A stretch of DNA of 48,634 nt from Flammeovirgaceae bacterium BBD 1991-12 (GTDB lineage: Bacteria; Bacteroidota; Bacteroidia; Cytophagales; Cyclobacteriaceae). Shown in pieces: positions 6,077-44,908 of the stretch (positions are counted from its first letter, which is position 1; the number at the start of each line of letters is the position of its first letter). Location of the stretch: NCBI GenBank assembly GCA_001657315.1, contig LYSV01000084.1:1-48634 (forward strand), written 5' to 3'. A program made the position numbers and the translations under genes. The notes under the pieces were generated by a model that saw nothing but the letters and a program-made list of their open reading frames with translations, was not told where the DNA came from and did not search any database.

Positions 6077-7249
6077 ATGAATTTGAGTGCTAAAGGTTAT
6101 CCTGTTTTAATTGGAATAGAGAGTTTGGTGATTTTATCGACTCTATTCTTGACGGTACTAAGTTGTAAGGGGCAGCCCAAAGATCTGAACCTTGGTGAGA
6201 TGGTGCAGCCTGTATCGGAGAAGCACGTTTTCATTGATGCAGATTATCACATTTGGGGAGCATCTGTAGTAAAAGGCTATGATGGGAAATATCACATGTA
6301 CTACGCGCGGTGGAACTATGAGTTTGGTCATATGGGATGGGTAACGGATTCTGAAATAGCCTACGCCGTAGCAGATAAAGCCGAAGGACCTTACGAACAT
6401 AAGAGCGTTGCTTTACCAGCACGTGGTAAAGAGTTCTGGGATGGCACTACTACACATAATCCAACGGTTTTTAAAAAAGATGGAATCTATTACCTGTATT
6501 ACATGGGAACTACGTCTCCGGTAAAAGCAGTTCAGCCAACATCTATGAAAAATAAGGATTGGTGGAAATATAGAAATGGTCAGAGAATAGGCGTGGCATG
6601 GTCGAAAAACCCTGAAGGTCCCTGGGAAAGGCTGGATAAACCAGTTATTGATGTAAGTGATGATCCCAGGGCACCGGACGCATTGATGACTTCTAATCCG
6701 GCTATCAACCTGGCTCCTGATGGCAGTGTATTTGCCGTTTACAAATGTGTAGGTAAGCAAGAGGGTTGGAAAGAGATAGATATGGATAGCCCGGAAAGTT
6801 ATCGGGTTTCTACAGGCGACAGAGTTCGGTATATGGTAGCTTTTGCAGACAATCCGTTTGGGCCTTTTAAAAAGCACACCGAGACCATATTTGAGCTAAA
6901 AGGATCTGAAGATGAACATATGATCGCCGAGGACCCTTACGTGTGGAGCCAGGATGGTATGTATTATGCATTAGTGACAGACATAAAAGGACTTTTTACA
7001 GGAGATTATGGTGCTATTGCTTTAATGGAGTCTGAAAACGGATATGACTGGAGGCAGGCTAAGCATCCAATGGTCGTTCCGAGCAAAATTTTAAAGGAAG
7101 ATGGCAGTCGTACCGAATATAAAATCGAACGGCCTCAACTGCTTGTCGAAGATGGTGAGCCTACCTTTCTATTTGGTGCACTTGGAATAACGGTGGGTGG
7201 AGTTCACAGAGGTCATGCGTGTAATCTCAGAATTCCATTGAAGAAATAG
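6077..7249 (+). CDS. GH43/GH32/GH117-like five-bladed propeller lipoprotein (copy 1)
   Basis: This 390-residue lipoprotein has the lipobox TVLSC. It belongs to the glycosidase-like five-bladed beta-propeller group related to GH43, GH32, GH117 and GH130. Visible family features are VKGYDGKYHMYY, TDSEIAYA, THNPTV, AEDPYVW and ERPQLLVEDG. The repeated 'dGxYyxYY' blade strands fit the fold. Two closer relatives of each other lie at 34105-35211 and 43789-44904; this copy is the most divergent (ARWNYEFGHMGW where they have SRWKKDLGWAW, plus an insertion after the THNPTV blade). Its catalytic residues and substrate cannot be set from sequence, but the neighbouring GH43 and beta-helix genes support a role in glycan breakdown. 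Confidence 0.8.
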   Translation: MNLSAKGYPVLIGIESLVILSTLFLTVLSCKGQPKDLNLGEMVQPVSEKHVFIDADYHIWGASVVKGYDGKYHMYYARWNYEFGHMGWVTDSEIAYAVADKAEGPYEHKSVALPARGKEFWDGTTTHNPTVFKKDGIYYLYYMGTTSPVKAVQPTSMKNKDWWKYRNGQRIGVAWSKNPEGPWERLDKPVIDVSDDPRAPDALMTSNPAINLAPDGSVFAVYKCVGKQEGWKEIDMDSPESYRVSTGDRVRYMVAFADNPFGPFKKHTETIFELKGSEDEHMIAEDPYVWSQDGMYYALVTDIKGLFTGDYGAIALMESENGYDWRQAKHPMVVPSKILKEDGSRTEYKIERPQLLVEDGEPTFLFGALGITVGGVHRGHACNLRIPLKK

Positions 7250-14492: not shown

Positions 14493-15353
14493 TCACTGTT
14501 TTCTAAACCGCCCCGGACTCATTCCTGTATGTCGTTTAAAAAGTCGTGAGAAATAGGACAGGTTTGACAAACCTATTTTAGTAGCTATCTCGGGAATGGT
14601 ATCAGAAGTTGTAGTTAAGAGCGTTTGAGCTCTCTCAATTCGTTTAGTTTGAATGTACTTTACAGGCCTGATACCAATCTGAGATTTGAAAGATCGGGAG
14701 TAATAGTCAGGATGGAGATGAAATACCTCTGCTACATGCTCCACGGAAAGATTGCCAGCCATATTTTCATGGATATATTGTACGCTCTCCATGATTCTCT
14801 GAGCAGTAGCTGAGTCATTTTTAGAGCCTGCTTCTTCATTGGAAATGAACCTTGCGAAAAGGGAGAGGAGGAGACCTTTCGATTCTAAAAAAGCAGATGA
14901 AGACATTTTCTCGCTTTTACGCTGGTATTCTGATAACACGGGATGATTATCATAGTATTCAGGATCGTCATTTTTCAAAGATCGATCAGGGTTCAGTGCT
15001 AAAAGCCGTTTGAAATTTCTCAGATCTTGTTCTGATCCTTTAACCTTGTAATTAAATTTCATTAGGTTATAAACAGATATTCCATCGCCTACCTCTTCAA
15101 AGAAACTCACGTAATACTGACTCATAAATTCGTCGCACTTATAACGACAGTAAGTAAAGCTCGGTATGAGATACATGTAGCCGGGCTTTAAGTCAAAAAC
15201 TTCATTATGATGATACACCCTGGCGGCACCCTCATCAATGTAATAGAGCCTGGTAAAAGAGCTAATGACATTATCATAATCCCATCGGGAATCCAGGGAT
15301 ACATGACCAATATTTATCAAAGACGTATTTAACTTGTCTAAATATTTGTACAC
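14493..15353 (-). CDS. AraC family transcriptional regulator
   Basis: This is a 286-residue cytoplasmic regulator. The N-terminal cupin-like sensor (about residues 30-75: YYIDEGAARVYHHNEVFDL, then KPGYMYLIPSFTYC) would bind a small ligand. The C-terminal 100 residues carry the double helix-turn-helix AraC/XylS domain (VEHVAEVFHLHPDYYSRSF, then IPEIATKIGLSNLSYFSRLF and the HTGMSPGRFRKQ ending). The start appears to be GTG at 15351-15353, because an in-frame stop lies two codons upstream and no ATG fits. It is divergent from the cytochrome/DUF1501 unit, with 138 bases between them, so it is a natural candidate to control that unit. Confidence 0.9.
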   Translation of the reverse strand: MYKYLDKLNTSLINIGHVSLDSRWDYDNVISSFTRLYYIDEGAARVYHHNEVFDLKPGYMYLIPSFTYCRYKCDEFMSQYYVSFFEEVGDGISVYNLMKFNYKVKGSEQDLRNFKRLLALNPDRSLKNDDPEYYDNHPVLSEYQRKSEKMSSSAFLESKGLLLSLFARFISNEEAGSKNDSATAQRIMESVQYIHENMAGNLSVEHVAEVFHLHPDYYSRSFKSQIGIRPVKYIQTKRIERAQTLLTTTSDTIPEIATKIGLSNLSYFSRLFKRHTGMSPGRFRKQ

Positions 15354-15491
15354 TAATTATTGTCGTTAAACAACTAAAATACTCATTATTAATGTATGTA
15401 GGTCGGATATGTACATAAAATCGTCTGATTAGGCCATTTGAAATCACTGATAATTTCGTTCATTTTATAATACCACAAAGATCATTGATTC

Positions 15492-18400
15492 ATGAGACTG
15501 TATTACTTAGTGTTTGTTCTGCTTTTACCCGGAGCTTGTACATCTGATTTGCCCGATGAAGTAGAAGCTGAGTATCAAAATCTGCCACATGAACTGGATT
15601 TCAATATCCATGTAAAACCCATTCTTTCAGATAAATGCTTCTTGTGTCATGGTCCTGATATGCAAAAACAGCAGGCAGGACTGAGGCTGGATATGCAAGA
15701 AGCTGCACATGGCAAGCTACCTAATCACCCATCGAAATATGCCATTCGCCCCGGGAGCTTATCCAAAAGTGTTGTTTTTGAGAGAATCATTTCGGATGAT
15801 CCTGAGCAGATCATGCCACCACAAGAGTCCAACCTAACCTTAACGGATCGGGAAAAAGCCATCATTGCAAAATGGATTGAAGAAGGTGCTGAATACAAGC
15901 CACACTGGGCTTTTCTCAAACCGGAAAAACCGGATGTGCCTGAGTTGTCCGATCCGTCCTGGGCAAAAAATGCCATTGATAATTTCATTGGCGATGTATT
16001 ATCATCCAAAGGACAAACCAGTGCCCCGGAGGCAGACAAGGAGACATTACTAAGAAGACTTACTTTCGATTTGACCGGATTGCCCCCGACACTTGAGCAG
16101 CTTGATGCTTTTATCAAAGATGACTCAGAAGATGCCTATGAAAAACAGGTAGATCGTTTATTGGCCTCCTCTCATTATGGTGAAAAAATGGCGATGGATT
16201 GGATAGATTTGGCACGATTCGCAGATACGCATGGCTACAGCATCGACAACTATCGCAACATGAGCCCCTGGCGAGACTGGGTAATCGGGAAGTTCAATGA
16301 GAACCAGCCTTATGATGAATTTGTGACCTGGCAACTTGCCGGAGACCTACTGGAAAACCCTACAAAAGAGCAGGTACTGGCTACCGCTTTTAACAGGTTA
16401 CATCCTCAGAATGGAGAGGGCGGTATCGTAGACGAAGAATTTCGGGTGGAATATGTCGTGGATAGGGTCAATACAGTTGGGACAGCCTTTATGGCGTTGA
16501 CGCTGGGTTGCTCAAAATGTCACGATCATAAGTACGATCCCATCTCCCAAAAAGAATACTTCCAGATGTCCGGCTTCTTCAACAATGTCAATGAAGCAGG
16601 GCAAATATCCTACGACAAGGCCATGCCTGTACCGACGATGCTTTTGACGGATGAAAGGAAAGAAGCCATTATAGAAATGATCGAAAACATGGTGGCAGGA
16701 AAAGAAGTTGCATCCGGTACCATGAACGAAGCAGATAAAGAGAATTTCAAAAAATGGATAGAAAATGAAAAGTATAAGACGCTTACATCCATTTCATCAC
16801 CAAAAGGATTGATCGGGCATTTTTCGTTTAAAAATAAAAGTCTAAGAAACGCAATCAACTCAAAACAAGTAGGTAAAATGGATCGTCATGGTTCCAGGGA
16901 CGAGAAGCCAACATTTACCAACGGTCACGAAGGTGATGGATTGTTGCTGGATGGAGATGCATGGCTGGATTGTGCCAACGTAGGTGAATTCACGAGAGAG
17001 CAACCTTTCAGTGTAGGGCTTTGGGTCAAAATTCCTGAAGAAGTCAAAAATGGCGTCATTTTTCATAAAGGTATAGGCGCTGCGCTGTATAATTTCCGGG
17101 GCTACCATTTAGCCATCAAAGACAACCGACTAGAGCTTTTGATGGCTCGTACCACGCCAGATAATGCCATAATGGAATATGCCGACGATGTTCCCAGGGA
17201 TCAATGGATACAACTCACCGTTACCTACGATGGCTCAAGTAAAGCGGATGGCTATCGCGTCTTTTTGAATGGCAAAGAACTAAGTACTACGGTAGAAGTA
17301 GACAACCTCTACAAGGATATTGACTTCTATCACCTGCCGGCAGACGAGCAGCCAGGTCTGCAAGTGGGTGCACGCTGGAGAGGTATTGGCATCGGTGGAG
17401 CTGTTGTTGACGATGTGAAAGTTTTTGACCGGGAGCTCACATCTGTTGAGGTATTGATGGTTGCTGATAATCGAAGTGCTTTGTCTGAGTTGACGACCAA
17501 AACGCCAGATCAACTGACCGGTACTGAGAAAGAAAGTTTACGGCAATATCATGTGCATAACTATTCCAGATCATTTCAAAAAAAGCTAAAGGATCTGGAG
17601 CATCATCGTCTTATGCTTAATGATAGCCTGGAGAATATTCCGGAGCTGATGGTGATGAAAGAGATGCCTGAGCCAAGAAAAACGTACGTCCTGAACAGAG
17701 GACAATACGATAATCATGGTGAAGAAGTATTCCCGGATGTGCCTGCAAGTGTATTGTCATGGCCATCGGATCTTCCTAAAAACAGACTGGGTTTTGCCCG
17801 GTGGCTGATGCATCCGGATCATCCGTTGACTGCCCGGGTGACGGTAAATCGCTATTGGCAAAATTATTTTGGAACCGGACTGGTGAAAACCACTGAGGAT
17901 TTTGGCAATCAGGGACACCTGCCCACCCATCCGAAACTACTGGATTGGTTGGCCGTTACTTTTAGAGCATCAGATTGGGACGTAAAAGCACTTCAGAAAC
18001 TCATCGTGATGTCCGCGACCTATCGCCAATCTTCTCGTGCCTCGGAGGAGCAGTTGCGAGATGATCCGGACAATGTTTGGCTGGCCAGGGGGCCGGCCTT
18101 GCGACTTTCGGGTGAAATGCTGCGAGACAATGCCTTATTGGCCAGTGGCTTGATGAATGATGATATCGGAGGTGAAAGCGTCAAGCCTTATCAGCCGGCA
18201 GGCCTTTGGCGAGTCAATGGCAAGACGTATGAGCGTGATACAGCGGATCGATTGTATCGAAGAAGTTTGTACACACTTTGGAAGCGGTCCGTTCCACACC
18301 CCACATTGGCTACGTTCGACTCTCCCGAAAGAAGCGAGTGTACCGTCCGAAGGCAAAAAACCAATACACCCCTTCAGGCGTTGGTGCTACTCAACGACCC

Positions 18401-18707
18401 CACTTTTGTGGAGGCCAGCAAAGTGATTGGTGAGCAAATCACCCGACAGGAAAATGTAGAGTTGGCCATTGGTGAAGCCTTTACTAAACTGACCGGGAGA
18501 AGGCCAAAAGAGGAGGAACTTACGATATTGAAAGAACTGCGCGAGGAGAGCTATCAAAACTTTAAAAACAATCCCAGGAAATCAAAAGGGTGGCTTAGCG
18601 CAGGAGAATACAAGTATGACGAAGCACTGGACGCAGATTTGATTGCGGCAAATGCAGTCGTTGCGAGTACGATCATGAATTCTGACGCCTTTATTACAAA
18701 AAGATAA
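15492..18707 (+). CDS. Planctomycete-type cytochrome c protein (PSCyt1-DUF1549-LamG-DUF1553)
   Basis: This 1071-residue protein is probably a lipoprotein (LPGAC, Cys16). Residues 36-130 form a PSCyt1 haem domain with C49-x-x-C52-H53 and a later IMPP that may supply the axial Met. DUF1549/PSCyt2 follows (WAKNAIDNFI, RRLTFDLTGLPPT, LARFADTHGYSIDNYR) with a second CxxCH in LGCSKCHDHKYDPI. A LamG/concanavalin-like domain (about residues 440-650; PFSVGLWVKIPEE, GLQVGARWRG) is inserted before DUF1553/PSD1 (HPLTARVTVNRYWQNYFG, EDFGNQGHLPTHPKLLDWL, RRQKTNTPLQALVLLNDP). The family is abundant in Planctomycetes; its biochemical role is not established. It heads a four-gene unit, with only 4 bases before the next gene. 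Localisation outside the cytoplasm and a redox role are inferred. Confidence 0.92.
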   Translation: MRLYYLVFVLLLPGACTSDLPDEVEAEYQNLPHELDFNIHVKPILSDKCFLCHGPDMQKQQAGLRLDMQEAAHGKLPNHPSKYAIRPGSLSKSVVFERIISDDPEQIMPPQESNLTLTDREKAIIAKWIEEGAEYKPHWAFLKPEKPDVPELSDPSWAKNAIDNFIGDVLSSKGQTSAPEADKETLLRRLTFDLTGLPPTLEQLDAFIKDDSEDAYEKQVDRLLASSHYGEKMAMDWIDLARFADTHGYSIDNYRNMSPWRDWVIGKFNENQPYDEFVTWQLAGDLLENPTKEQVLATAFNRLHPQNGEGGIVDEEFRVEYVVDRVNTVGTAFMALTLGCSKCHDHKYDPISQKEYFQMSGFFNNVNEAGQISYDKAMPVPTMLLTDERKEAIIEMIENMVAGKEVASGTMNEADKENFKKWIENEKYKTLTSISSPKGLIGHFSFKNKSLRNAINSKQVGKMDRHGSRDEKPTFTNGHEGDGLLLDGDAWLDCANVGEFTREQPFSVGLWVKIPEEVKNGVIFHKGIGAALYNFRGYHLAIKDNRLELLMARTTPDNAIMEYADDVPRDQWIQLTVTYDGSSKADGYRVFLNGKELSTTVEVDNLYKDIDFYHLPADEQPGLQVGARWRGIGIGGAVVDDVKVFDRELTSVEVLMVADNRSALSELTTKTPDQLTGTEKESLRQYHVHNYSRSFQKKLKDLEHHRLMLNDSLENIPELMVMKEMPEPRKTYVLNRGQYDNHGEEVFPDVPASVLSWPSDLPKNRLGFARWLMHPDHPLTARVTVNRYWQNYFGTGLVKTTEDFGNQGHLPTHPKLLDWLAVTFRASDWDVKALQKLIVMSATYRQSSRASEEQLRDDPDNVWLARGPALRLSGEMLRDNALLASGLMNDDIGGESVKPYQPAGLWRVNGKTYERDTADRLYRRSLYTLWKRSVPHPTLATFDSPERSECTVRRQKTNTPLQALVLLNDPTFVEASKVIGEQITRQENVELAIGEAFTKLTGRRPKEEELTILKELREESYQNFKNNPRKSKGWLSAGEYKYDEALDADLIAANAVVASTIMNSDAFITKR

Positions 18708-18711
18708 GATT

Positions 18712-20208
18712 ATGTGCGACCATCATCATCCAAAACCAAGATCCAATGATCCTGACCTAAAAGAGATCGAGAAACAAATGGATCGTCGGGAGTTTTTGAC
18801 AAAGACTTCTCTTGGACTAGGAGCTATGGCTTTTGGTTCACTATTGGGTATGGATAAAGCGTTCGCCTCTTCGCCAAACAACCCCATTTCAGGTCCAAAC
18901 GGGATTCCAGGTCTTCCTCATTTTGTTCCCAAAGCAAAACGGATTGTGTACCTGTTCCAAAGTGGAGGCCCTTCACAGTTGGAAACGTACGATTACAAAC
19001 CTAAACTCCAGCAGTTGCATGGTCAACAATTGCCTGATTCGGTGAGAAAGGGTCAGCGATTGACCGGAATGAGTGCCGATCAGACCTCATTGCCGGTGAC
19101 TTCATCCATTTATAAATTCAATCAGTACGGTGAAAGTAGAGCCTGGGTAAGTGAATTAATGCCTCACACAGCTGAGATGGTGGACGACATCTGTTTCATC
19201 AAGTCCTTGCACACGGAACAAATCAACCACGATCCGGCAATCACTTTTTTCCAAACCGGTCATCAGCTTCCTGGTCGTCCGTCTATTGGCTCCTGGCTGA
19301 ATTATGGCTTGGGTACGGACAATGAAAATTTGCCGGCTTTCATTGTGTTGGTTTCCAGGAATTCAGGAGGGCAACCATTATACGCACGACTATGGGGCAA
19401 CGGCTTTTTGCCTACAGAGCACCAGGGAGTGCAATTCAGGTCTGGCAAAGACCCTGTTTTGTACTTAAGTGATCCGGAGAATTTTGATGGTCAGGATCGT
19501 AGACACATGCTGGATTACCTGCATAAACTCAATGCGGTACAGAACGATACATATGGTGATCCGGAGATCAACGCAAGGATGGCGCAATACGAAATGGCCT
19601 ACAAGATGCAAACCTCTGTGCCTGAGGTAACAGACCTAAGCGATGAGCCTGATCATATTTTTGATATGTATGGTGAGGATAGTCGAGATCCCGGTACGTA
19701 TGCTGCCAATTGTCTGATGGCCCGGAAGCTGTTAGAGAAAGGCGTCAGGTTTGTACAGCTATACCATCAAGGCTGGGATCACCATGGATGGCTACCAAGT
19801 GGGATAAAAGGGCAATGCCAACGAACGGATCAGGGTACTGCTGCGCTACTAAAGGATCTGAAGCAGCGAGGGTTGTTGGAAGATACCCTCGTCATATGGG
19901 GAGGTGAGTTCGGTCGTACGGTGTACTCACAGGGTAAATTAACTGCTACTAACTATGGAAGAGATCATCACCCAAGATGCTTCACCATGTGGATGGCAGG
20001 AGCAGGTGTAAAACCTGGATTTAGCTATGGTGAAACAGATGATTTTAGTTATAACATCATGAAGGATCCGGTACATGTGCACGATTTTCATGCTACGCTC
20101 ATGCACCTCATGGGAGTAGATCATGAAAAACTCACTTTTAAACACCAGGGACGTAGGTACCGGCTGACAGATGTCCATGGGCATGTGGTAAAAGATATTT
20201 TGACTTAA
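18712..20208 (+). CDS. DUF1501 family protein with Tat signal
   Basis: This is a 498-residue protein of the alkaline-phosphatase-like DUF1501 family. The His-rich start MCDHHHPKPRS is followed by a twin-arginine signal (DRREFLTKTSLGLGAMAFGS), so it should be exported folded, perhaps with metal bound. Typical conserved segments are present: LFQSGGPSQLETYDYKP, LHTEQINHDPA, YHQGWDHHG, WGGEFGRT, GRDHHPRCFTMWMAGAGVK and VHDFHATLMHLMGVDH. The many His and Asp residues suggest metal binding. It lacks the C/S-x-P-x-R sulfatase signature, so 'sulfatase' would be an overcall. DUF1501 genes commonly follow PSCyt-DUF1553 genes and probably act with them; the reaction is unknown. Confidence 0.93.
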   Translation: MCDHHHPKPRSNDPDLKEIEKQMDRREFLTKTSLGLGAMAFGSLLGMDKAFASSPNNPISGPNGIPGLPHFVPKAKRIVYLFQSGGPSQLETYDYKPKLQQLHGQQLPDSVRKGQRLTGMSADQTSLPVTSSIYKFNQYGESRAWVSELMPHTAEMVDDICFIKSLHTEQINHDPAITFFQTGHQLPGRPSIGSWLNYGLGTDNENLPAFIVLVSRNSGGQPLYARLWGNGFLPTEHQGVQFRSGKDPVLYLSDPENFDGQDRRHMLDYLHKLNAVQNDTYGDPEINARMAQYEMAYKMQTSVPEVTDLSDEPDHIFDMYGEDSRDPGTYAANCLMARKLLEKGVRFVQLYHQGWDHHGWLPSGIKGQCQRTDQGTAALLKDLKQRGLLEDTLVIWGGEFGRTVYSQGKLTATNYGRDHHPRCFTMWMAGAGVKPGFSYGETDDFSYNIMKDPVHVHDFHATLMHLMGVDHEKLTFKHQGRRYRLTDVHGHVVKDILT

Positions 20209-20221
20209 CCTACCCAAAAAA

Positions 20222-21337
20222 ATGACAACAAGAAGAAATTTTGTAAAGAAGACTACCGCTGCAGGTATCGGACTTTCGGCTACCTCACTCTTTAATTATA
20301 ATGTAACCGCAGCACCTAAAAAATCTCAAGATGATCTGATAGTTGGGCACGGCGACTTCAAATACCGAGTAGATAAAAGCTGGGGAAATCTGGATCCTGT
20401 CAAGGTGCCTGTCGACAACTGCCACGAAATGGTGGTTGATTCCAAAGGACGCATCATCCTTTTGACAGATGAGATCAGGAATAATCTCATCATCTACGAC
20501 CAGTCAGGAAACCTGATTGATGCTTATTGCAACCGTTTTCCTGGAGGGCACGGACTGACCATCAATGAAGAAGGAGGAGAGGAGTTTCTGTATATCTGTG
20601 ACAGTGGTTGGTTTCACGATCATAAATATCCGGACGATTGGAAATACTTTAGTGGTAATGGATTTGCTTCTAAGATCACCATGAAAGGGGAATTGGTTTT
20701 TAATTTGGCAGATCCTCGTACAACAGGTGTTTATGAGCCTGATATGAAGTTCAAACCATCAGAAACAGCTGTTGCGCCAAATGGAGACATTTACGTAGCA
20801 GATGGTTATGGCTCCAACTACATCATCCAATACGATCAATATGGTCGCTATATCCGTCATTTTGGAGGTTCAAGGAATGAAGACCCTGACTACAACCTTA
20901 ATGGGGCACACGGAGTGACATTAGACACCCGAAACCCTGACGAACTTCAACTCATCGTTACTTCCAGATTCGACTGTGCATTTAAGTTTTTTACGTTAGA
21001 CGGTAAGTTCAAAAAACAGGTAACTATTCCAGGAGCATTAGTAAACAGAGCGGTAATTCACGGAAAAAACATTTATGCTGGCGTGTGCTGGTCGAAGATA
21101 GACGGTAAGCTCAAGGATGGAACTGGTTATGTCACTATTCTTGATGAGAATGACAAGGTGGTTTCCAACCCTGGAGGTCAGGCACCAAGGTATGTTGATG
21201 GAGAACTGCAGTATCAGATTCAGGAAGTGCCATTTATCCGACACGGCCATGATGTTTGTGTCGATGGCGACGAAAATGTCTATGTGTGTCAGTGGAACGG
21301 TGGACGTACCTATCCGATCAAGCTAGAGCGGGTTTAA
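20222..21337 (+). CDS. NHL-repeat-type six-bladed beta-propeller with Tat signal
   Basis: This is a 371-residue protein with a twin-arginine leader (TRRNFVKKTTAAGIGLSATS). The remainder is NHL-type propeller blades: DNCHEMVVDSKGRIILLTDE, PGGHGLTINEEGGEEFLYI, APNGDIYVADGYGSNYIIQY, NGAHGVTLDTRNPDEL and RHGHDVCVDGDENVYVCQW. His residues at the start of several blades (CHEM, GHGL, AHGV, GHDV) line up with metal- or substrate-binding positions seen in peptidyl-glycine lyase-like propellers, but this is analogy only. It sits 13 bases after DUF1501 and 3 bases before the next gene, so it is part of the same unit. It is probably a periplasmic partner or enzyme of unknown substrate. Confidence 0.88.
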   Translation: MTTRRNFVKKTTAAGIGLSATSLFNYNVTAAPKKSQDDLIVGHGDFKYRVDKSWGNLDPVKVPVDNCHEMVVDSKGRIILLTDEIRNNLIIYDQSGNLIDAYCNRFPGGHGLTINEEGGEEFLYICDSGWFHDHKYPDDWKYFSGNGFASKITMKGELVFNLADPRTTGVYEPDMKFKPSETAVAPNGDIYVADGYGSNYIIQYDQYGRYIRHFGGSRNEDPDYNLNGAHGVTLDTRNPDELQLIVTSRFDCAFKFFTLDGKFKKQVTIPGALVNRAVIHGKNIYAGVCWSKIDGKLKDGTGYVTILDENDKVVSNPGGQAPRYVDGELQYQIQEVPFIRHGHDVCVDGDENVYVCQWNGGRTYPIKLERV

Positions 21338-21340
21338 CGC

Positions 21341-22696
21341 ATGAATTGGGAGCTTTTTATTGGGCGGTTCCATCCGTTGGTAGTTCATTTGCCGATTGGT
21401 TTTTTGCTATTGGCACTGATCATGGAGCTGGTAAGCATTTTCCTTAAAGACAAAACCAAAAACCTGGATTCAGCCATTGGTATCGCTTTATTAGCAGGAG
21501 GTATTGGAGGGGTAGGTTCTGTGGCCATAGGCCTTCTACTTGCAACAGGAGGTGGATACGAAGCGGCTACCCTGGACTGGCATAAGTGGATGGGTATCCT
21601 GGTGACGATACTTGCTTTTGTAGCCTGGGGATTGAAAAAAAGCTTCTTGAGCATTTCACCTCTGATCGAGAGGGCCCTTTTGTTCGGAATCGTTCTAGGT
21701 ATATCTATAACAGGTCACTTAGGGGGCAACCTTACCCATGGAAGCGATTATCTACTAGCCTATGCTCCGGATCTGGTGAAAAAGGTAGCAGGTGTCTCGT
21801 CCGAAACACGTAAAATAAAAGTTCCTGATCACCTTGATTCTATAGTGGTCTTTGACCATCTCGTTAAGCCTATTCTGGAGTCGAAGTGTGTCAGTTGTCA
21901 TAACCCTACTAAAACTCAAGGTGGATTGCTTATGACCGCTGCAGGACTTCAGGCAGGGGGTGATTCAGGTCCATCGCTTCATGGAGGCGAGCCATTCAAA
22001 AGTGAGTTATTCATTCGAACCACCTTGCCTCAAAGCAGCAAAAAATTCATGCCACCTAAAGGAGAGACATTGTCTTACGCCGAAATCAAACTTTTAGAGT
22101 GGTGGATAGGGGAAGGTGCGTCCATGACTGCTCCTGTAACTAAAATGAAAGCCAGCTCAGAGGTGAAAACGCTGCTTTTACGTGATTTTCAATTGGACCT
22201 TAACGTAAAACCACATTATGAAAGAGTCCAACTGGAACCCGTCAGCAGGAATCTGATTGAGCAGGCAGAATCAAAAGGCTGGATCATCCAACCTTTGGCA
22301 TCTGGGCATGCTATGTTGGATGTGAAATTTGATAATACAGAACTCACAGAAGAGGCCATCGGGACTTTGGTACCTATTGCGCAAAATGTTGCCTTTCTGG
22401 ATTTAAGTGATGTTGTATTTGACGAAGGTTCATTTCAAAATCTTGTGAATTTCGAGAACCTTGTGCGCCTCAAACTCGCCGGTAGCTCTGTGCAGGATGC
22501 GGAGCTACCAGCCATAGAGAACCTTCTTTTCTTGGAAGTACTGAACGTCTACAATACCCACCTGACTGAGAATTCTTTGGAAAGCATTGCAAAAATCAAG
22601 TCATTAAAAAAGTTGTACCTCTGGCGTACGGAAATAAAATCAGAAAGCCTGGAGCCCTTAAAGTCGCAACTTTCAAGTACAGAGATTATCGGTTAG
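21341..22696 (+). CDS. Inner-membrane DUF2231-cytochrome c (PSCyt1) protein with LRR-like tail
   Basis: This is a 451-residue membrane protein. The N-terminal DUF2231 domain has four predicted helices (about residues 12-32, 43-66, 80-100, 108-128) and the motif HPLVVHLPIGF. A periplasmic PSCyt1-type haem domain follows, with C183-VS-C186-H187 and a later FMPPKGE. Residues 300-450 look like leucine-rich repeats (NVAFLDLSDVVFDEGSF, NLVRLKLAGSSV, FLEVLNVYNTHLT, SLKKLYLWRTEI). It is the last gene of the four-gene unit and its only obvious membrane anchor, so it could pass electrons between the quinone pool and the soluble partners. That electron path is inference. Confidence 0.88.
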   Translation: MNWELFIGRFHPLVVHLPIGFLLLALIMELVSIFLKDKTKNLDSAIGIALLAGGIGGVGSVAIGLLLATGGGYEAATLDWHKWMGILVTILAFVAWGLKKSFLSISPLIERALLFGIVLGISITGHLGGNLTHGSDYLLAYAPDLVKKVAGVSSETRKIKVPDHLDSIVVFDHLVKPILESKCVSCHNPTKTQGGLLMTAAGLQAGGDSGPSLHGGEPFKSELFIRTTLPQSSKKFMPPKGETLSYAEIKLLEWWIGEGASMTAPVTKMKASSEVKTLLLRDFQLDLNVKPHYERVQLEPVSRNLIEQAESKGWIIQPLASGHAMLDVKFDNTELTEEAIGTLVPIAQNVAFLDLSDVVFDEGSFQNLVNFENLVRLKLAGSSVQDAELPAIENLLFLEVLNVYNTHLTENSLESIAKIKSLKKLYLWRTEIKSESLEPLKSQLSSTEIIG

Positions 22697-22779: not shown

Positions 22780-25700
22780 CTATTTCGTAATTTTTATTCC
22801 TTTTTGATTCCTGCTGTAATCAGCCGGGGTCATTCCAAATTCTTTCTTAAAGCAATTTCTGAAATACTTCGGATCAAGAAACCCAACTTCATACATCACC
22901 TCATTGACAGAGAATCGATTTTTATCGAAAAGTTGCCGCGCTCGTTGTATTCGTATATTTCTAATGAAGACGAGAGTGGTCTGACCTACTAAGACCTTAA
23001 GCTTTTTATTCAAATGGAAGGATGACATGCCAACATCTCTTGCAAACATTTCTACGGTATATTCGGAATTACCAATGTTCTTTTCAACGTAACTTAAAGC
23101 CCTTGAAAGAAATTTTTCATCCAAAGAGGTTATTTTAATTTCACTGGGCATTATTCTTTCCCCTTTATTGAATTTTTTAAGGAAAGACCTTCTGGATGCC
23201 AGAAGTGCCTCCATCCTTGCGTCCAGCTCCCTTAATTCAAACGGTTTAACAATATAAGCATCGGCACCGGTTTCGTAACCACTTAATTTAGATTCATTAG
23301 ATGCTTTGGCAGTTATCAGGATAACCAGGATATGATTGATTCTATTATCATTTTTCAGTTTTTTGCAAAACTCCATTCCATCCATAACAGGCATCATTAT
23401 ATCGCTTATCACCAAATCGACTCTCTCAGAGACACATTTTTCGAGTGCTTCTTCTCCATTTTGCGCAGTAAGTATCTTGTATCTATCCTTCAGATATTCT
23501 GTTAAAGAGAATAAAATATCTTGATTATCCTCAACAAGTAAGATAGTTTCCCGTGATTCTATTTCAACGAGTTCTTTATTTTTTATGTCGGTTTCTTCGC
23601 CTGAATCTATCAGCCAATTCACTTCTTTGTTTTCTACATATTCCTCGGATTCACTAAAATCTGTTTGCGTTATTTCATCATTTAAAAAAGCTTCTTTTTC
23701 TATGGGTAAAATGACTGAAAAGGTAGTTCCTTCATTCTCTTTTGAAACAAAGCTTATCGATCCATGATATAGCTCAATAAGACCCTTGGTATAAGCTAAT
23801 CCAATGCCAGATCCGCTTTCCTTTTTTGGATAAAAATCTGAAAATCGTTCAAACAAATGTTCTTGCACGGTTTTGGACATTCCAACTCCGCTATCCTTAA
23901 CCTCTAATTCTATTTTCTTGCCAGAGTCATCTTTATCGAGAGTTACTGTAATTTCACCGTCGTTGGGGGTAAACTTGAAGGCATTGGATAGTAGGTTAAA
24001 CAATACTCTTTCTAGAATTTCTTTATCATAATAGCCCACTATGACCTCATGACATACAAATTGGAAGTCTATCCTCTTTTTTCTGGCGACCTCGTTGAAA
24101 TTATCACATAAACTCTTAATGTAGGTACTGCACTTCCCTTTTGATACTTTTATCGGCATTTTACCTTGCTCTACCTTACGAAAATCGAGCAATTGATTAA
24201 TTAAATTCAGGAGGATATGAGTATTACGATGTATTTTGGAATAATAGGTTTTTAGCTCTCCTTCTGTCAGAGAGCGTTTACTTTTTCTCAGTTGTTCAGT
24301 AAGTCCAAGTATTAGCGTAAGAGGTGTTCGAAATTCGTGGGAGACATTCGTAAAAAAGCGAAACTTTAGCTGGTTTAGTTCTTCAATTTTTTCCTTTTCC
24401 AGGTGATCTATTAATAACTGGTTCTTTCTTGAATTCTTGATGACGGTATACTTTCTAAAAAACCATAAACAAAGAATAATCATTATCAGGTAGAGGGTCT
24501 TGGCATATATTGATGCCCATACCGGGGGTGCAATCTCGATATCTAATTTAATTGGGTTTTCGTTCCAGAAAAGATCACCATTGCTTGCCTTCATCTTCAA
24601 TGTATATTCCCCCGCCGGAACATTCGTGTATCTTGCCATTCTAACATCTGAAGAAACATTTATCCAGTCATCATCAAAACCCTCCAGCATAAATGAGTAC
24701 TGATTGTTTTCTGGCGATGCAAAGTGTGTAATGGCAAATTCCACTGAAAAGCTATTTTCCTTATGTTTAAGCTTAATTTTTTCAAGATCGTTTATGTTTC
24801 GCTCAAGTAAAACTCTACCATTTATATGCTCTTGCGGATTAATTGATTTATCTAAAATCTTAAAATCAGTAATAACAAGTGGAGCTTTTGTTGTGTCTTT
24901 TATGATCTCCCCTGGTTTGAAATTGACGAATCCATTAACACTACCAAAAAGCATTTCTCCATTCCGAAGCGTTTCTGATGCCACCTCGGTAAATTCCCAA
25001 TCGTGCAGCCCATCGCCTATGCCGAAGTTGTCATATTCTTCCCTGGAAGGATCAAATCTCACAATCCCTTTATTGGTGCCAAGCCAGAGATTTCCTTCTT
25101 TATCTTCTTCAATAGATTTTACATTATTATCGATTAGTCCATTTGATACATTAAACCTTTGAAAGCTATCATCATTGTCAGCGACGCCTCTTATCACTTT
25201 GTTTAGACCTCCACCAATCGTTCCTACCCAGATAGTCCCATCCGTTGAGATATGAATAGGAATGACATAGTCATATCCAATTGACGAAGAATCATTTACA
25301 TTGTACTGGTATCGTATAAAAGATGGCGACTCCTTATATTTTTCTTCCCTGGTTAGTTTATGAAGGCCTCTCTCAGTACCGATCCATAGATTTCCATAAG
25401 GATCCTCTTTGATACATCTGATTACATTAGCTGTACTTTTATTGTTGGAGGGGTCATATTTCATATGGTTGAAAGAAACCAACTTTCCATTTCTATCAAG
25501 TTTAATTCTGTGCAACCCATCAGCATAGGTACCCACCCACAAAAAGTTATTTGAATCGTGGTATAACCACATAACAATCCCTTCAATATCATGTCCTTCA
25601 AAAGCCTGAGAAGACAGTTTTTGTGTTTTTTCATTATACTGAACTATATGAAGAAATCCTGGATGATCCGTCCCGACAAACATTAGGTTCGCTACAGTAT

Positions 25701-26985
25701 TTTGAGACTCTTCCAGGGCAAAAACAAATTCTTCTCTACCCTCAAGTTCTACTTTCTCAAATCCACTTTCATAAGCTTTCACGGGTCTCTTTTTATGAAA
25801 ATTGAGACCTCCACCTTCCGTGGCTACCCAAAGATTACCGAGTTGATCCTCTTTTATCGAGCGCATCTTACTTCCAGGCAAGCTGCCTTTTTCAAGTGTT
25901 TCAAAGTAGTGGCGAAATTTCTTCCTTAAAGGGTTGAACATATTGACCCCGCCGCCACTGGTTCCGATCCAAATTATTCCATTGCTATCACTGAATATGC
26001 TTAGACACTGATTTCTACTGAGGCTGTTTGGGTTGGATAAATCATTTGAAAAGCTGGAATATACCAGGCCGTTTTTGTTTGAAACCATGAGGCGTGCACC
26101 TGTAGCGTTAACACCCCAGATATTCCCATTTTTATCTACACATATCTTTCTTCCTGAAATATTGTTAAGATCATGCGTAGAGGGATTTGTTTTGTATATT
26201 TCACCGAAAGGTAGAAGCAGGACCTGTTGTACGTTACTAATCACTAATGCACTATCGTTTTTAGTGATATCAGTGATTCTTGGAGGACTTAAAGGTAATT
26301 CATATTGAATGAACCTATGGGTTGAGTCTCTTTTTCCGATATCATATCTGTAAAGCCCACTGCTTGTTCCAAACCATAGATCATCGAATGGGTCCATAAA
26401 GATCTTGAAAATATGATTACTTCTTAAGGAAAAAGGAGCTTGAACATCAGCCCAAATATGTTCGATATCAAATGATTTATTATCGTTAACCTGTATTACA
26501 TTAAGACCGTTAATAGTACCCACCCAAATTCTTCCGTCACTTGCTTCCTGCATACTAACGATGTGATTGTTGGTGATAACGTTAGGACTTGATGATGAAT
26601 TTTTAATTTGGGCCATTTTATTGGCTGACCGGTCATAAAACGTTATTCCAGCATCATTTGTACCAATCCAGATGTTGCCATGGCTATCCTCTATAATAGA
26701 ACTGATAAGGTTACTCGACAATGAATTTGTGTTACCAACCTCTTTCTGAAAAACTTTGAAATTGTACCCATCAAAACGATTGACTCCTCCATTCGTTCCA
26801 AGCCAAATGAATCCATAGGAGTCTTGAATAATGCAAGTGACATCATTTTGTGAGAGACCATCTTTTGCCGAGAAGATTTCAAAGTAAGCATCAATGGCTG
26901 CGGCATCTTTTTGTGCAACCAATTGAGAAGGTAGCATGACGATGAGTAGTAATGCAATTGCCTGTTTTAGTATTTTATGCTCCAT
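22780..26985 (-). CDS. Hybrid two-component system regulator (HTCS)
   Basis: This one-protein sensor and regulator has about 1401 residues from the ATG at 26983-26985; a TTG 24 bases upstream extends the frame but leads with a poorer signal. The order is: signal peptide (KQAIALLLIVMLPSQLVAQ); two periplasmic seven-bladed propellers built from Reg_prop repeats (IWLGTNGGVNRFDGYNF, WVGTINGLN, LWVATEGGGLNF); Y_Y_Y domain (YSFMLEGFDDDWINV); one membrane helix (LYLIMIILCLWFF); HisKA with H883 in TNVSHEFRTPL; HATPase (SGSGIGLAYTKGL); receiver domain with D1195 in VISDIMMPV; and a C-terminal AraC DNA-binding domain (VNEVMYEVGFLDPKYFRNCF). HTCS proteins bind a polysaccharide fragment in the periplasm and switch on the adjacent SusCD locus. 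It diverges from susC. Confidence 0.96.
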   Translation of the reverse strand: MEHKILKQAIALLLIVMLPSQLVAQKDAAAIDAYFEIFSAKDGLSQNDVTCIIQDSYGFIWLGTNGGVNRFDGYNFKVFQKEVGNTNSLSSNLISSIIEDSHGNIWIGTNDAGITFYDRSANKMAQIKNSSSSPNVITNNHIVSMQEASDGRIWVGTINGLNVIQVNDNKSFDIEHIWADVQAPFSLRSNHIFKIFMDPFDDLWFGTSSGLYRYDIGKRDSTHRFIQYELPLSPPRITDITKNDSALVISNVQQVLLLPFGEIYKTNPSTHDLNNISGRKICVDKNGNIWGVNATGARLMVSNKNGLVYSSFSNDLSNPNSLSRNQCLSIFSDSNGIIWIGTSGGGVNMFNPLRKKFRHYFETLEKGSLPGSKMRSIKEDQLGNLWVATEGGGLNFHKKRPVKAYESGFEKVELEGREEFVFALEESQNTVANLMFVGTDHPGFLHIVQYNEKTQKLSSQAFEGHDIEGIVMWLYHDSNNFLWVGTYADGLHRIKLDRNGKLVSFNHMKYDPSNNKSTANVIRCIKEDPYGNLWIGTERGLHKLTREEKYKESPSFIRYQYNVNDSSSIGYDYVIPIHISTDGTIWVGTIGGGLNKVIRGVADNDDSFQRFNVSNGLIDNNVKSIEEDKEGNLWLGTNKGIVRFDPSREEYDNFGIGDGLHDWEFTEVASETLRNGEMLFGSVNGFVNFKPGEIIKDTTKAPLVITDFKILDKSINPQEHINGRVLLERNINDLEKIKLKHKENSFSVEFAITHFASPENNQYSFMLEGFDDDWINVSSDVRMARYTNVPAGEYTLKMKASNGDLFWNENPIKLDIEIAPPVWASIYAKTLYLIMIILCLWFFRKYTVIKNSRKNQLLIDHLEKEKIEELNQLKFRFFTNVSHEFRTPLTLILGLTEQLRKSKRSLTEGELKTYYSKIHRNTHILLNLINQLLDFRKVEQGKMPIKVSKGKCSTYIKSLCDNFNEVARKKRIDFQFVCHEVIVGYYDKEILERVLFNLLSNAFKFTPNDGEITVTLDKDDSGKKIELEVKDSGVGMSKTVQEHLFERFSDFYPKKESGSGIGLAYTKGLIELYHGSISFVSKENEGTTFSVILPIEKEAFLNDEITQTDFSESEEYVENKEVNWLIDSGEETDIKNKELVEIESRETILLVEDNQDILFSLTEYLKDRYKILTAQNGEEALEKCVSERVDLVISDIMMPVMDGMEFCKKLKNDNRINHILVILITAKASNESKLSGYETGADAYIVKPFELRELDARMEALLASRRSFLKKFNKGERIMPSEIKITSLDEKFLSRALSYVEKNIGNSEYTVEMFARDVGMSSFHLNKKLKVLVGQTTLVFIRNIRIQRARQLFDKNRFSVNEVMYEVGFLDPKYFRNCFKKEFGMTPADYSRNQKGIKITK

Positions 26986-27009
26986 CAGGAAAATCTTAAT
27001 GTTATCCAA

Positions 27010-34080: not shown

Positions 34081-34104
34081 CCATCTCCTTATAGATAATT
34101 GAAA

Positions 34105-35211
34105 ATGCTCAGGTTTTGCCAAACTACGATTGGTATATTGATATGTTCTGTGGTCTTTGTTTTATCGTGCAAAACCGATGAGCAAGTTGCTATACAAGAA
34201 ATGGAATGGGGTAATGTTGCTAATGAGTCCATTTTTTCAGGTGGAGATGAATTCAGTCATTGGGGAGGTTCCCTTGTGAAAGGTGATGATGGGCTGTATC
34301 ATATGTATTACTCACGATGGAAAAAGGACTTAGGATGGGCCTGGGTGACTCACTCGGAAATTGCGCACGCTACTTCGAAGACACCATTTGGTCCCTTTGA
34401 ATTTAAGAGCCTCGCTTTACCGGCAAGAGGTGCAGAGTTTTGGGATGGTCTGTGCACACATAATCCTACTGTACACAAATTCGATGATAAATACTACCTC
34501 TATTACATGGGTAATACAGGTGATGGTATTAATACATGCAAGCCGGGTGACCTAAAAATTAACTGGACGCATAGAAACAATCAACGAATAGGAGTTGCCG
34601 TGGCAGATGATCCTGGCGGGCCATGGCAAAGAATGGATGTACCTCTGATAGATGTAAGTCAGGACAGCACATCGCTGGATGCCTTAATGGTCAGCAATCC
34701 TTCCGTTACAAAACGCCCTGATGGTGGATATCTTATGGTCTATAAGGCTGTTGGCAAAAAGAGGCCAGGTATTCACGGTGGCCCTGTCGTACACTGTGTT
34801 GCTACATCAGACAGTCCTGTTGGCCCATTTAAGAAATACAACTTCCCGGTATTCACCGCAGAAGGGTATGATTTCCCAGCGGAAGATCCGTCCATTTGGT
34901 ACCAGGACGGGAAGTATAGAGCCATTGTAAAAGATATGCATGGTGCTTTTACCGATGCAGGGCGGGCACTGGTATATTTTGAATCCATAGATGGTTTTGA
35001 TTGGAAGCTTGCGGATAACCCGGTAGCATCTAAACTTCAAATAAAGAAAGAGAATGGAGAAATGGTTAAGGTAGATCACCTGGAGAGACCACAAATTTAT
35101 ATAGAAGACGGTAAGCCTGTAGCGGTATTATGTGCAGCAGATACGATCGATTCAAATGGTGTTTTGCATTCCTGGAACGTTCAGATCCCTTTGTCAAATA
35201 CTTCTGAATAG
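34105..35211 (+). CDS. GH43/GH32/GH117-like five-bladed propeller lipoprotein (copy 2)
   Basis: This is a 368-residue lipoprotein with lipobox FVLSC followed by KTDEQ. The ATG at 34105 is preferred over the TTG two codons upstream. It shares almost every blade with copy 3 at 43789-44904 (SRWKKDLGWAWVTHSEIAHA, RGAEFWDGLCTHNPTVHKFD, WTHRNNQRIGVAVADDP, KDMHGAFTDAG, LERPQIYIEDGKP) and less with copy 1. The fold is that of GH43, GH32, GH117 and GH130 enzymes. Acidic residues in FPAEDPSIW and the LERPQ strand are the likeliest active-site positions by comparison. No characterised member is known to me. It starts just after the susCD terminator. Confidence 0.82.
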   Translation: MLRFCQTTIGILICSVVFVLSCKTDEQVAIQEMEWGNVANESIFSGGDEFSHWGGSLVKGDDGLYHMYYSRWKKDLGWAWVTHSEIAHATSKTPFGPFEFKSLALPARGAEFWDGLCTHNPTVHKFDDKYYLYYMGNTGDGINTCKPGDLKINWTHRNNQRIGVAVADDPGGPWQRMDVPLIDVSQDSTSLDALMVSNPSVTKRPDGGYLMVYKAVGKKRPGIHGGPVVHCVATSDSPVGPFKKYNFPVFTAEGYDFPAEDPSIWYQDGKYRAIVKDMHGAFTDAGRALVYFESIDGFDWKLADNPVASKLQIKKENGEMVKVDHLERPQIYIEDGKPVAVLCAADTIDSNGVLHSWNVQIPLSNTSE

Positions 35212-43788: not shown

Positions 43789-44904
43789 ATGAAATTCAGT
43801 GTAATCACCGTAGTAGTATCCATCCTTTTAGTTACCTGCTCGACCAAAATGTTGGAAGATTCATTAGAAAACCGAATGACGGAAAGCGAGTCATTCCAAC
43901 TTAGATTAGGTAAGGTTTCCCGTAAGTCTGTTTTTACAGAAGATGGGATGACGGTTTGGGGTGCTTCTACTGTTAAAGGAGAAGATGGATTGTATCACAT
44001 GTTCTATTCCCGATGGAAAAAAGATCTGGGATGGGCATGGGTGACGCATTCTGAAATTGCTCATGCAGTTTCCGAATCTCCCTTTGGTCCTTTTAAACAT
44101 AAGCAGGTGCTGTTCCCGGCCAGAGGTGCAGAATACTGGGACGGACTGTGCACCCATAACCCTACGGTACATAAGTTTGATGGCAAGTACTACTTATATT
44201 ATATGGGAAACACCGGTGATGGTGTGAATCCTGCAACTCCTGGTCAAATCGAATACAATTGGACGCATAGAAATAATCAACGAATAGGTGTTGCTGTAGC
44301 TGATGATCCGAACGGACCCTGGGAGCGTTTCGATGCCCCATTGATTGATGCGAGCGAGGATACAACGGCACTGGACGCATTATTAGTCAATAACCCCTCT
44401 GTTACAAAAGGTCCTGATGGTAAATATTTGATGGTTTACAAAGCAGTAGGAAAGAAAACAAAAGAAATTTGGGGTGGTCCGGTAGTGCACTGTGTGGCTA
44501 CTTCTGATAGTCCTACCGGACCTTTCAGGAAATACGATTTTGCCGTATTCACAGCTAAAGACAATGAGTTTCCTGCGGAAGACCCATTTATTTGGTATCA
44601 AGATGGAAAATACAGGGCCATTGTAAAAGACATGAATGGAGCCTTCACCGATGCCGGTCAGGCGCTGGTGTTATTTGAATCTGAGGATGGTTTTGATTGG
44701 AATTTGTCGGGTAATCCACTGCTTTCCAAACTACAGATCACCTGGGAAGATGGGACCGTTCAGAAGCTAAAACACCTTGAACGCCCGCAATTGTACATGG
44801 AGGACGGCAAGCCAAAAGCATTGTTATGTGCAGCCGATACGACGGATGCTGATGGCGTATTACATTCATGGAATGTCCAAATACCAATTATTGAAACGGA
44901 TTGA
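43789..44904 (+). CDS. GH43/GH32/GH117-like five-bladed propeller lipoprotein (copy 3)
   Basis: This is a 371-residue lipoprotein with lipobox LLVTC. It is very similar to copy 2 (34105-35211) over the whole mature protein: DGLYHMFYSRWKKDLGWAW, EYWDGLCTHNPTVHKFDGKY, WTHRNNQRIGVAVADDPNGP, EFPAEDPFIWYQDGKYRAIV and HLERPQLYMEDGKPKALLCA. The N-terminal leader differs, as expected for an older duplication. It lies between GH2 and GH16 genes with gaps of 7 and 4 bases, so all are one transcript. The activity is probably exo-glycosidic, but unproven. Confidence 0.82.
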   Translation: MKFSVITVVVSILLVTCSTKMLEDSLENRMTESESFQLRLGKVSRKSVFTEDGMTVWGASTVKGEDGLYHMFYSRWKKDLGWAWVTHSEIAHAVSESPFGPFKHKQVLFPARGAEYWDGLCTHNPTVHKFDGKYYLYYMGNTGDGVNPATPGQIEYNWTHRNNQRIGVAVADDPNGPWERFDAPLIDASEDTTALDALLVNNPSVTKGPDGKYLMVYKAVGKKTKEIWGGPVVHCVATSDSPTGPFRKYDFAVFTAKDNEFPAEDPFIWYQDGKYRAIVKDMNGAFTDAGQALVLFESEDGFDWNLSGNPLLSKLQITWEDGTVQKLKHLERPQLYMEDGKPKALLCAADTTDADGVLHSWNVQIPIIETD

Positions 44905-44908
44905 ACGG

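What the first reader, a model, noticed from the sequence alone, without database searches (positions are those of the whole stretch)
15492..22696. Cytochrome/DUF1501 four-gene redox-like unit embedded in a SusCD glycan locus
Four genes with gaps of 4, 13 and 3 bases encode a PSCyt1-DUF1549-LamG-DUF1553 lipoprotein (two CxxCH motifs), a Tat-exported DUF1501 protein, a Tat-exported NHL propeller and a DUF2231 membrane protein with another CxxCH. Seen: the domains, haem motifs, export signals and tight spacing. Known: PSCyt/PSD and DUF1501 families are abundant in Planctomycetes and lack an assigned reaction. Inferred: the membrane cytochrome exchanges electrons with the quinone pool while the LamG-bearing protein binds glycan, so the unit may oxidise or otherwise modify the polysaccharide outside the cytoplasm. 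This is the best candidate here for an undescribed system.
Basis: partly seen in the sequence, partly recalled or inferred. Interest (0 to 1): 0.75.

Follow-up and report, generated by a model that had tools for sequence, protein, structure and literature searches.

The report
Self-regulated cytochrome unit beside glycan locus
Four neighbouring genes, probably switched by their own regulator, look like a membrane-linked electron-transfer system with an unknown substrate; it is a recurrent gene set in Bacteroidota that here sits inside a polysaccharide-use locus without being tied to such loci elsewhere.

Summary
In detail: four genes (15492-22696; gaps 4, 13, 3) encode PSCyt1-DUF1549-LamG-DUF1553, DUF1501, an NHL-type propeller and DUF2231-PSCyt1. 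The set recurs: the same genome has a second copy in another order without SusCD; in related genomes 54 of 56 complete stand-alone PSCyt genes are linked to DUF1501, 26 to DUF2231, 12 to NHL. In nine further genes DUF2231, PSCyt1, DUF1549 and DUF1553 are one polypeptide (six of six sent to Pfam confirmed), so membrane cytochrome and PSCyt protein very likely act together. DUF1501 probably has a sulfatase/alkaline-phosphatase fold, without the sulfatase signature. The SusCD link is weak: SusD near 8 of 75 relatives' sites, 5.95 expected. Best reading: a separately regulated periplasmic redox module, probably quinone-linked, probably with a sugar-derived substrate. Reaction, substrate and electron direction are not shown.

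The parts
14493..15353 (-). AraC-family regulator, divergent from the unit; proposed dedicated regulator
   Evidence: HTH_18 1.3e-21; near full-length matches, divergent from and next to PSCyt, in L153 (64%), L165 (46%), L145 (41%)
15402..15432 (+). Proposed AraC operator: two direct half-sites (GTCGGATATG / GTCTGATTAG), starts 21 bases apart
   Evidence: Conserved in the AraC-PSCyt intergenic of four genomes; one site in each of these four genomes, none in five others; none in 100 shuffles of the window. Binding not tested
15492..18707 (+). PSCyt1-PSCyt2(DUF1549)-LamG-PSD1(DUF1553), two CxxCH, probable lipoprotein
   Evidence: Pfam; exactly two CxxCH in 90 of 90 stand-alone and 9 of 9 fused survey proteins; model pLDDT 75.9; no PDB match among the 50 listed that I could assign to the core
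18712..20208 (+). DUF1501, Tat signal, probable sulfatase/alkaline-phosphatase fold, no CxPxR
   Evidence: Pfam; Foldseek best 3.3e-7 to sulfatases with low TM-scores, 0.23-0.39 by query; hhalign 4.1e-6, probability 87, to own sulfatases over 94 columns
20222..21337 (+). NHL-type beta-propeller, Tat signal
   Evidence: NHL by Pfam; phmmer to the Brain tumor protein propeller 8.4e-8; 10 homologues aligned
21341..22696 (+). DUF2231 membrane domain + PSCyt1 cytochrome c + LRR-like C-terminus
   Evidence: Pfam; H11, H16, H81, H126, H133, C183, C186, H187 and M237 in 33 of 33

Best explanation
The genes form a self-contained periplasmic redox module with its own AraC switch. SHOWN by computation: conserved gene linkage; natural fusions of the membrane cytochrome with the PSCyt core; two CxxCH in every PSCyt protein counted; five conserved membrane histidines and a CxxCH...Met cytochrome in the DUF2231 protein; a probable sulfatase/alkaline-phosphatase fold for DUF1501; a conserved site unique to the promoter of the unit in four genomes. 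INFERRED: the DUF1549/DUF1553 core is the redox site; electrons pass between its c haems, the PSCyt1 haem of the DUF2231 protein and b haems in the DUF2231 bundle, and so the quinone pool; the likelier direction is substrate to quinone (dehydrogenase-like). DUF1501 and the propeller act on the same periplasmic substrate before or after the redox step. LamG is a substrate-binding insert of this clade. The substrate is probably a sugar or sugar derivative, here perhaps from a red-algal galactan. The inducer is sensed by the AraC protein, not by the hybrid regulator next to SusCD.
For: Linkage in a set chosen by PSCyt2 alone: of 56 complete stand-alone genes (14 genomes) 54 with DUF1501, 26 with DUF2231, 12 with NHL; 8 of 9 fusions with DUF1501. 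Second copy in own genome in another order. Fusions: nine in the survey, six of six sent to Pfam confirmed; all five membrane His in 10 of 10 fused DUF2231 domains (one cut by a contig end) and in 65 or 66 of 66 separate ones, the exception a gap. Haem motifs. Three PF01578 cytochrome-assembly places in the genome. DUF1501 fold. AraC relatives and site. Sugar-type context: LacI, AraC and Gfo/Idh neighbours, AP_endonuc_2 inside the operon of L034, fucosidase beside L015, a sugar-oxidation-like operon beside L165; density correlations.
Against: No flavin, PQQ or molybdenum domain matched in the four proteins. No usable fold match for the DUF1549/DUF1553 core. No local enrichment beyond chance for SusD, sulfatase or Gfo/Idh; AP_endonuc_2 10 of 75 against 5.86 expected is weak. 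In the whole survey 22 complete stand-alone genes have DUF1501 but neither DUF2231 nor NHL linked, so the membrane partner is often not encoded beside it. A simple Met-Pro pattern for an axial Met after a CxxCH was found in 65 of 90 stand-alone and only 2 of 9 fused PSCyt proteins. AraC and site are in only four members of the nine-row clade; three others with fully searched genomes (G033, G019, G032) have no site. Haem b in DUF2231 rests on histidines only.
Confidence: 0.5

Rival explanations
1. One reading: the unit is part of this SusCD locus and oxidises or modifies the polysaccharide that SusCD imports, outside the cytoplasm.
For: Position between glycoside hydrolases and SusCD in the window; LamG domain; L165 also lies in a polysaccharide locus, SusC/SusD about 16 kb away and a porphyranase-like gene about 0.8 kb behind the unit; L137 has SusC/SusD about 16 kb away; two window GH43-like genes resemble anhydrogalactosidases.
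Against: SusD linkage near chance (8 of 75, 5.95 expected); of the nine clade members only the window has SusCD within 10 kb in the DNA seen (the upstream sides of L026 and L028 were not held and contigs end early in L142 and L164); own AraC and single site; the SusC of the L165 locus is not that genome's best match to the window SusC.
Confidence: 0.2
2. The unit works in the reductive direction: quinol to haem b to haem c to the PSCyt core, which reduces peroxide or O2 (peroxidase-like protection).
For: A multihaem protein with a membrane cytochrome partner fits either direction. The Rhodopirellula PSD1/PSC2 gene RB10051 is named as the suggested target of an ECF sigma factor up-regulated under three stresses (PMC2754498, passages).
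Against: Near-universal pairing with a probable hydrolase-fold protein (54 of 56) and LacI or AraC neighbours fit a substrate-specific role better; no peroxidase family matched.
Confidence: 0.15
3. DUF1501 is the actual enzyme (a phosphate- or sulfate-ester hydrolase) and the cytochromes only sense or scaffold.
For: D356, H358, D373, E399 and H419 of DUF1501 in 98 of 98 rows; sulfatase-like fold; linkage.
Against: Two CxxCH in 99 of 99 PSCyt proteins speak for haem chemistry; no sulfatase signature; Glu399 aligns where sulfatases have the metal Asp.
Confidence: 0.12

Closest known systems
Planctomycete-specific cytochrome (PSCyt/PSD) genes of Planctomycetes and Verrucomicrobia
   Same: PSCyt and PSD domain combinations with carbohydrate-binding inserts including pfam13385, conserved neighbouring families of unknown genes, function unknown (He et al. 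2017, PMC5615132, passages seen). That the neighbour of PSCyt2 is DUF1501 I did not read in the main text; the library search counts DUF1501 three times in that record
   Different: Here in Bacteroidota, with a DUF2231-PSCyt1-LRR membrane cytochrome and a propeller in the operon, natural fusions, and a dedicated AraC regulator; DUF2231 is counted 0 times in that record
Membrane-linked periplasmic sugar dehydrogenases with cytochrome subunits (recalled, for example glucoside 3-dehydrogenase)
   Same: Exported proteins plus cytochrome c and a path to the quinone pool (works like; inferred)
   Different: No flavin, PQQ or molybdenum domain matched in the four proteins
S1 sulfatases / alkaline phosphatase superfamily (for DUF1501)
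   Same: Probable fold, C-terminal profile match
   Different: No CxPxR motif in the sequence; Glu399 aligned at the metal Asp
SusCD polysaccharide utilization loci
   Same: Neighbourhood in this window
   Different: Not a regular neighbour elsewhere; separate regulator

Membership tests
PSCyt1-PSCyt2-PSD1 family | Pfam PF07635, PF07583, PF07587 above gathering in one protein | tested here: met
   48.8, 282.4, 337.8 bits against 22, 29.8, 28.5
PSCyt1-PSCyt2-PSD1 family | Two CxxCH haem motifs | tested here: met
   Both invariant in 24 sequences; exactly two in 99 of 99 survey proteins
PSCyt1-PSCyt2-PSD1 family | Linked DUF1501 gene | tested here: met
   Gap 4 bases; 54 of 56 in relatives
S1 sulfatase | Alkaline-phosphatase-like fold | tested here: met
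   Foldseek 3.3e-7, probability 1.00, but TM-scores of only 0.23-0.39 by query and model pLDDT 71
S1 sulfatase | C/S-x-P/A-x-R nucleophile motif | tested here: not met
   Read from the sequence; Pfam Sulfatase not matched
Quinone-linked sugar dehydrogenase | Flavin, PQQ or molybdenum catalytic domain | tested here: not met
   None in the four proteins at E 0.01
Quinone-linked sugar dehydrogenase | Membrane cytochrome partner | tested here: met
   DUF2231-PSCyt1 gene and fusions; haem binding itself not tested
Quinone-linked sugar dehydrogenase | Sugar oxidation coupled to quinone | not testable with these tools
   Needs enzymology
SusCD polysaccharide utilization locus component | Recurrent linkage to SusCD | tested here: not met
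   8 of 75 against 5.95 expected
SusCD polysaccharide utilization locus component | Co-regulation with SusCD | tested here: inconclusive
   Own AraC gene and site argue against; no expression data

The most novel reading that the evidence does not exclude
The unit is a new kind of haem-only, quinone-linked periplasmic oxidoreductase: the DUF1549/DUF1553 dihaem core itself, without flavin, PQQ or molybdenum, oxidises a sugar substrate that the sulfatase-fold DUF1501 and the propeller also handle, and hands electrons through PSCyt1 to haem b in DUF2231. The fused form shows the minimal machine, and the same chemistry would then explain the many PSCyt copies of Planctomycetes and Verrucomicrobia.
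Probability: 0.2. Interest if true: 0.85.

Novelty: new variant of a known kind. Interest (0 to 1): 0.55.

Why it matters
PSCyt2 and PSD1 domains each occur 41 times in Rhodopirellula baltica (PMC2754498, passage), and a 2017 study of Verrucomicrobia states that nothing is known about the functions of PSCyt-encoding genes (PMC5615132). The fusions tie them to a membrane cytochrome, which turns 'function unknown' into a concrete electron-transfer hypothesis, and the one-promoter AraC system with a defined site gives a direct way to find the inducing compound with a reporter.

Tried and rejected
SusCD membership was tested by counting and rejected as a general property. Neighbourhood enrichment of sulfatase (8 windows against 7.73 expected) and Gfo/Idh (10 against 7.72) was not found; AP_endonuc_2 is weak (10 against 5.86). 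Expected counts are Poisson values from Pfam counts per genome and genome sizes rounded by the tool; observed counts come from my own HMMs, trained on 20-30 loci each and perhaps less sensitive than Pfam, so observed values may be low. Clustering of such genes makes the expected values upper bounds.

The unit as a recent insertion into the SusCD locus: unit genes have higher GC3 (0.42-0.46) than the other 19 window genes (mean 0.37; Mann-Whitney p 0.003), but the longest ORFs of 60 SusD and sulfatase loci of the genome average 0.51, so the surrounding locus is the odder part; not decided. A SusC shared between the window and the L165 locus: rejected, that genome has a better match on another contig.

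Fold of the PSCyt core: the 50 listed Foldseek matches (148 at E 0.001 or better) are clostridial toxin-type proteins whose shared part is a lectin-like jelly roll, most over 195-266 columns, which fits the LamG insert; rows with longer alignments have rmsd of 30 or more. I take this as saying nothing about the core. The second structural aligner was not available.

Literature: the all-term search DUF1501+DUF1553+DUF1549 gave 0 papers; wider searches gave few. Only PMC5615132, PMC2754498 and PMC4982196 were opened, as passages; no supplementary text was read.

Rows left out: L009 (PSCyt fragment), L016 and L025 (DUF1501, cut at the contig end), L035 (DUF2231 fragment) and L010 (weak NHL match) from alignments A5-A8. 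For the linkage count only PSCyt genes at least 1.5 kb from a locus end were used: 65 in the relatives' set, 56 stand-alone and 9 fused. The two stand-alone genes without linked DUF1501 are in L154 and L186. A 400-base gap limit is why fusion L196 (DUF1501 418 bases away) counts as unlinked.
Full report
1. The observation. Pfam confirms PSCyt1, DUF1549, Laminin_G_3 and DUF1553 in the first, DUF1501 in the second, NHL in the third, DUF2231 plus PSCyt1 (and sub-threshold LRR) in the fourth.

2. It is a unit. The same genome (8.59 Mb, 282 contigs) holds one other PSCyt2 gene. It lies in a second copy of all four genes on contig C2, in the order DUF1501-PSCyt-DUF2231-NHL, with identities of 46% (PSCyt), 68% (DUF1501), 49% (NHL) and 39% (DUF2231). 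A scan of named genomes with the DUF2231 proteins gave 31 loci, all with Bacteroidota titles. Twenty carry PSCyt, DUF1501 and DUF2231 together; in L016 the pair lies 6.7 kb from DUF2231; in ten others one or both are not seen, several of these at contig ends. To avoid the bias of that query I took all 80 PSCyt2 places of 18 relatives (19 of 58 genomes searched have the family, own included; none of 14 others of the same genus) in 75 stretches. Of 56 complete stand-alone PSCyt genes (14 genomes), 54 have DUF1501 in the same run of genes, 26 DUF2231 and 12 NHL; 6 have all three. In five loci (L014, L019, L021, L022, L023) another protein stands in the place of NHL; the one sent to Pfam is Mala_s_1-like, which I recall as a propeller.

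3. Fusions. In nine relatives' genes DUF2231, PSCyt1, DUF1549 and DUF1553 are one protein; Pfam confirms this in six of six sent. Eight have DUF1501 linked, and the ninth misses my gap limit by 18 bases. Each has two CxxCH, and the five DUF2231 histidines are kept in 10 of 10, counting one more, truncated fusion. The fused type is diverged (second motif CASCH[DN]SF; the CxxCHDHK form is in 73 of 90 stand-alone proteins), and its DUF1501 partners form their own branch. This is the strongest evidence that membrane cytochrome and PSCyt core work as one.

4. Parts. In 33 of 33 DUF2231 proteins H11, H16, H81, H126, H133, CxxCH 183-187 and Met237 are conserved. Histidines near the ends of hydrophobic stretches fit b haems, and CxxCH...Met fits a His/Met c haem (inference). 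PSCyt proteins have exactly two CxxCH in 99 of 99; an axial-Met pattern was found in 65 of 90 stand-alone and 2 of 9 fused ones, so that ligand is less sure. The DUF1501 model (pLDDT 71) matches sulfatases and alkaline phosphatases with good E-values but low TM-scores; the profile comparison puts Glu399 at the sulfatase metal aspartate; no CxPxR is present. The PSCyt model (pLDDT 76) gave no usable match for its core. The genome has cytochrome c assembly proteins.

5. The regulator. An AraC gene lies divergently, 138 bases upstream of the PSCyt gene. Relatives matching nearly its whole length lie in the same divergent position in three other genomes (L153 64%, L165 46%, L145 41%). The four intergenic stretches share one block, GTCGGATWTGTRCAWA, five bases, GTCNNRTTNG, that is two direct half-sites starting 21 bases apart. 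With up to two mismatches it occurs once in each of these four genomes, in this place, and not in five others searched; the reversed control gives none. Presence in the four is by construction, uniqueness is not. Three of the five (G033, G019, G032) carry clade members of the unit without this AraC and site. With up to three mismatches no other match was found in 1.80 Mb of other survey sequence; a four-mismatch match lies just upstream of the PSCyt gene in L026, none in L028. So in these four genomes the unit seems to be its own regulon. The hybrid regulator at 22780-27009 is divergent from SusC.

6. The glycan link. The DUF1501 tree puts the window in a nine-row clade (SH-aLRT 100, quick method) with L142, L165, L145, L153, L164, L137, L026 and L028. 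Their PSCyt proteins are all of the long type, 1070-1083 aa; LamG in the other eight is inferred from length only. Only the window has SusCD within 10 kb in the DNA seen (upstream sides of L026 and L028 not held). In wider flanks taken for L165, L153, L145, L142, L164 and L137, SusC/SusD lie about 16 kb from the unit in L165 and L137, a weak SusD about 27 kb away in L145, and none was labelled for the other three. L165 lies in a polysaccharide locus: zinc ADH, SDR, aldehyde dehydrogenase, MR/MLE enzyme, aldose epimerase and RhaT upstream, GDSL esterase and a porphyranase-like protein downstream, with a sulfatase. In the window, two GH43-like proteins resemble 3,6-anhydro-alpha-L-galactosidases of the PDB (other GH43-type structures match the first about as well or better), and two GH2 and two GH16-type genes are present. 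A red-algal galactan is thus a fair guess for these two loci, no more. In the 75 relatives' stretches SusD appears in 8 (5.95 expected), sulfatase in 8 (7.73), Gfo/Idh in 10 (7.72), AP_endonuc_2 in 10 (5.86). PSCyt2 density correlates with all four across 18 genomes (rho 0.47-0.62, p 0.006-0.046, kinship not corrected), so a carbohydrate role is likely, a SusCD partnership is not shown.

7. Verdict. Known: PSCyt genes with carbohydrate-binding inserts and conserved unknown neighbours in Verrucomicrobia, often near sulfatase genes, function unknown (PMC5615132, passages). Not met in my searches of one open-access library (listings, with three papers opened as passages): the Bacteroidota gene set with DUF2231, the fusions, and the AraC site.

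Noticed in passing
window 1-48634 (contig C67): The 19 other window genes have mean GC3 0.37 against 0.51 in 60 SusD and sulfatase loci of the genome, and none of 14 other same-genus genomes has PSCyt2: the locus may be foreign, or the contig misbinned (2.31% contamination).
   Followed up: partly
window 6077-7249, 34099-35211, 43789-44904: GH43-like proteins; the first two match anhydrogalactosidase structures among others, the third was not compared with the PDB.
   Followed up: partly
L026 and L028 (Arenibacter): A four-gene unit followed directly by a second three-gene unit with a short (780 aa) PSCyt, then ApbE and an M20 peptidase gene.
   Followed up: no
L027, L029, L033, L036, L037, L143 and others: Longer DUF2231 proteins (about 700-740 aa); two of two tested (L029, L143) have an Fn3_assoc/CHB_HEX_C_1 domain after the LRR part.
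   Followed up: no
L133 4643-6979; relatives in L194, L198, L199: A DUF7133-HEAT-cytochrome c protein (one tested by Pfam) recurs near the units.
   Followed up: no
L034 9064-9972; L176: A xylose-isomerase-like TIM barrel gene lies inside the operon between DUF1501 and DUF2231 of L034 (Pfam); L176 has a similar gene by phmmer, not found again by the later HMM.
   Followed up: no
window 44777-46723: The listed ORF overlaps the preceding gene by 128 bases; its true start is probably further downstream.
   Followed up: no
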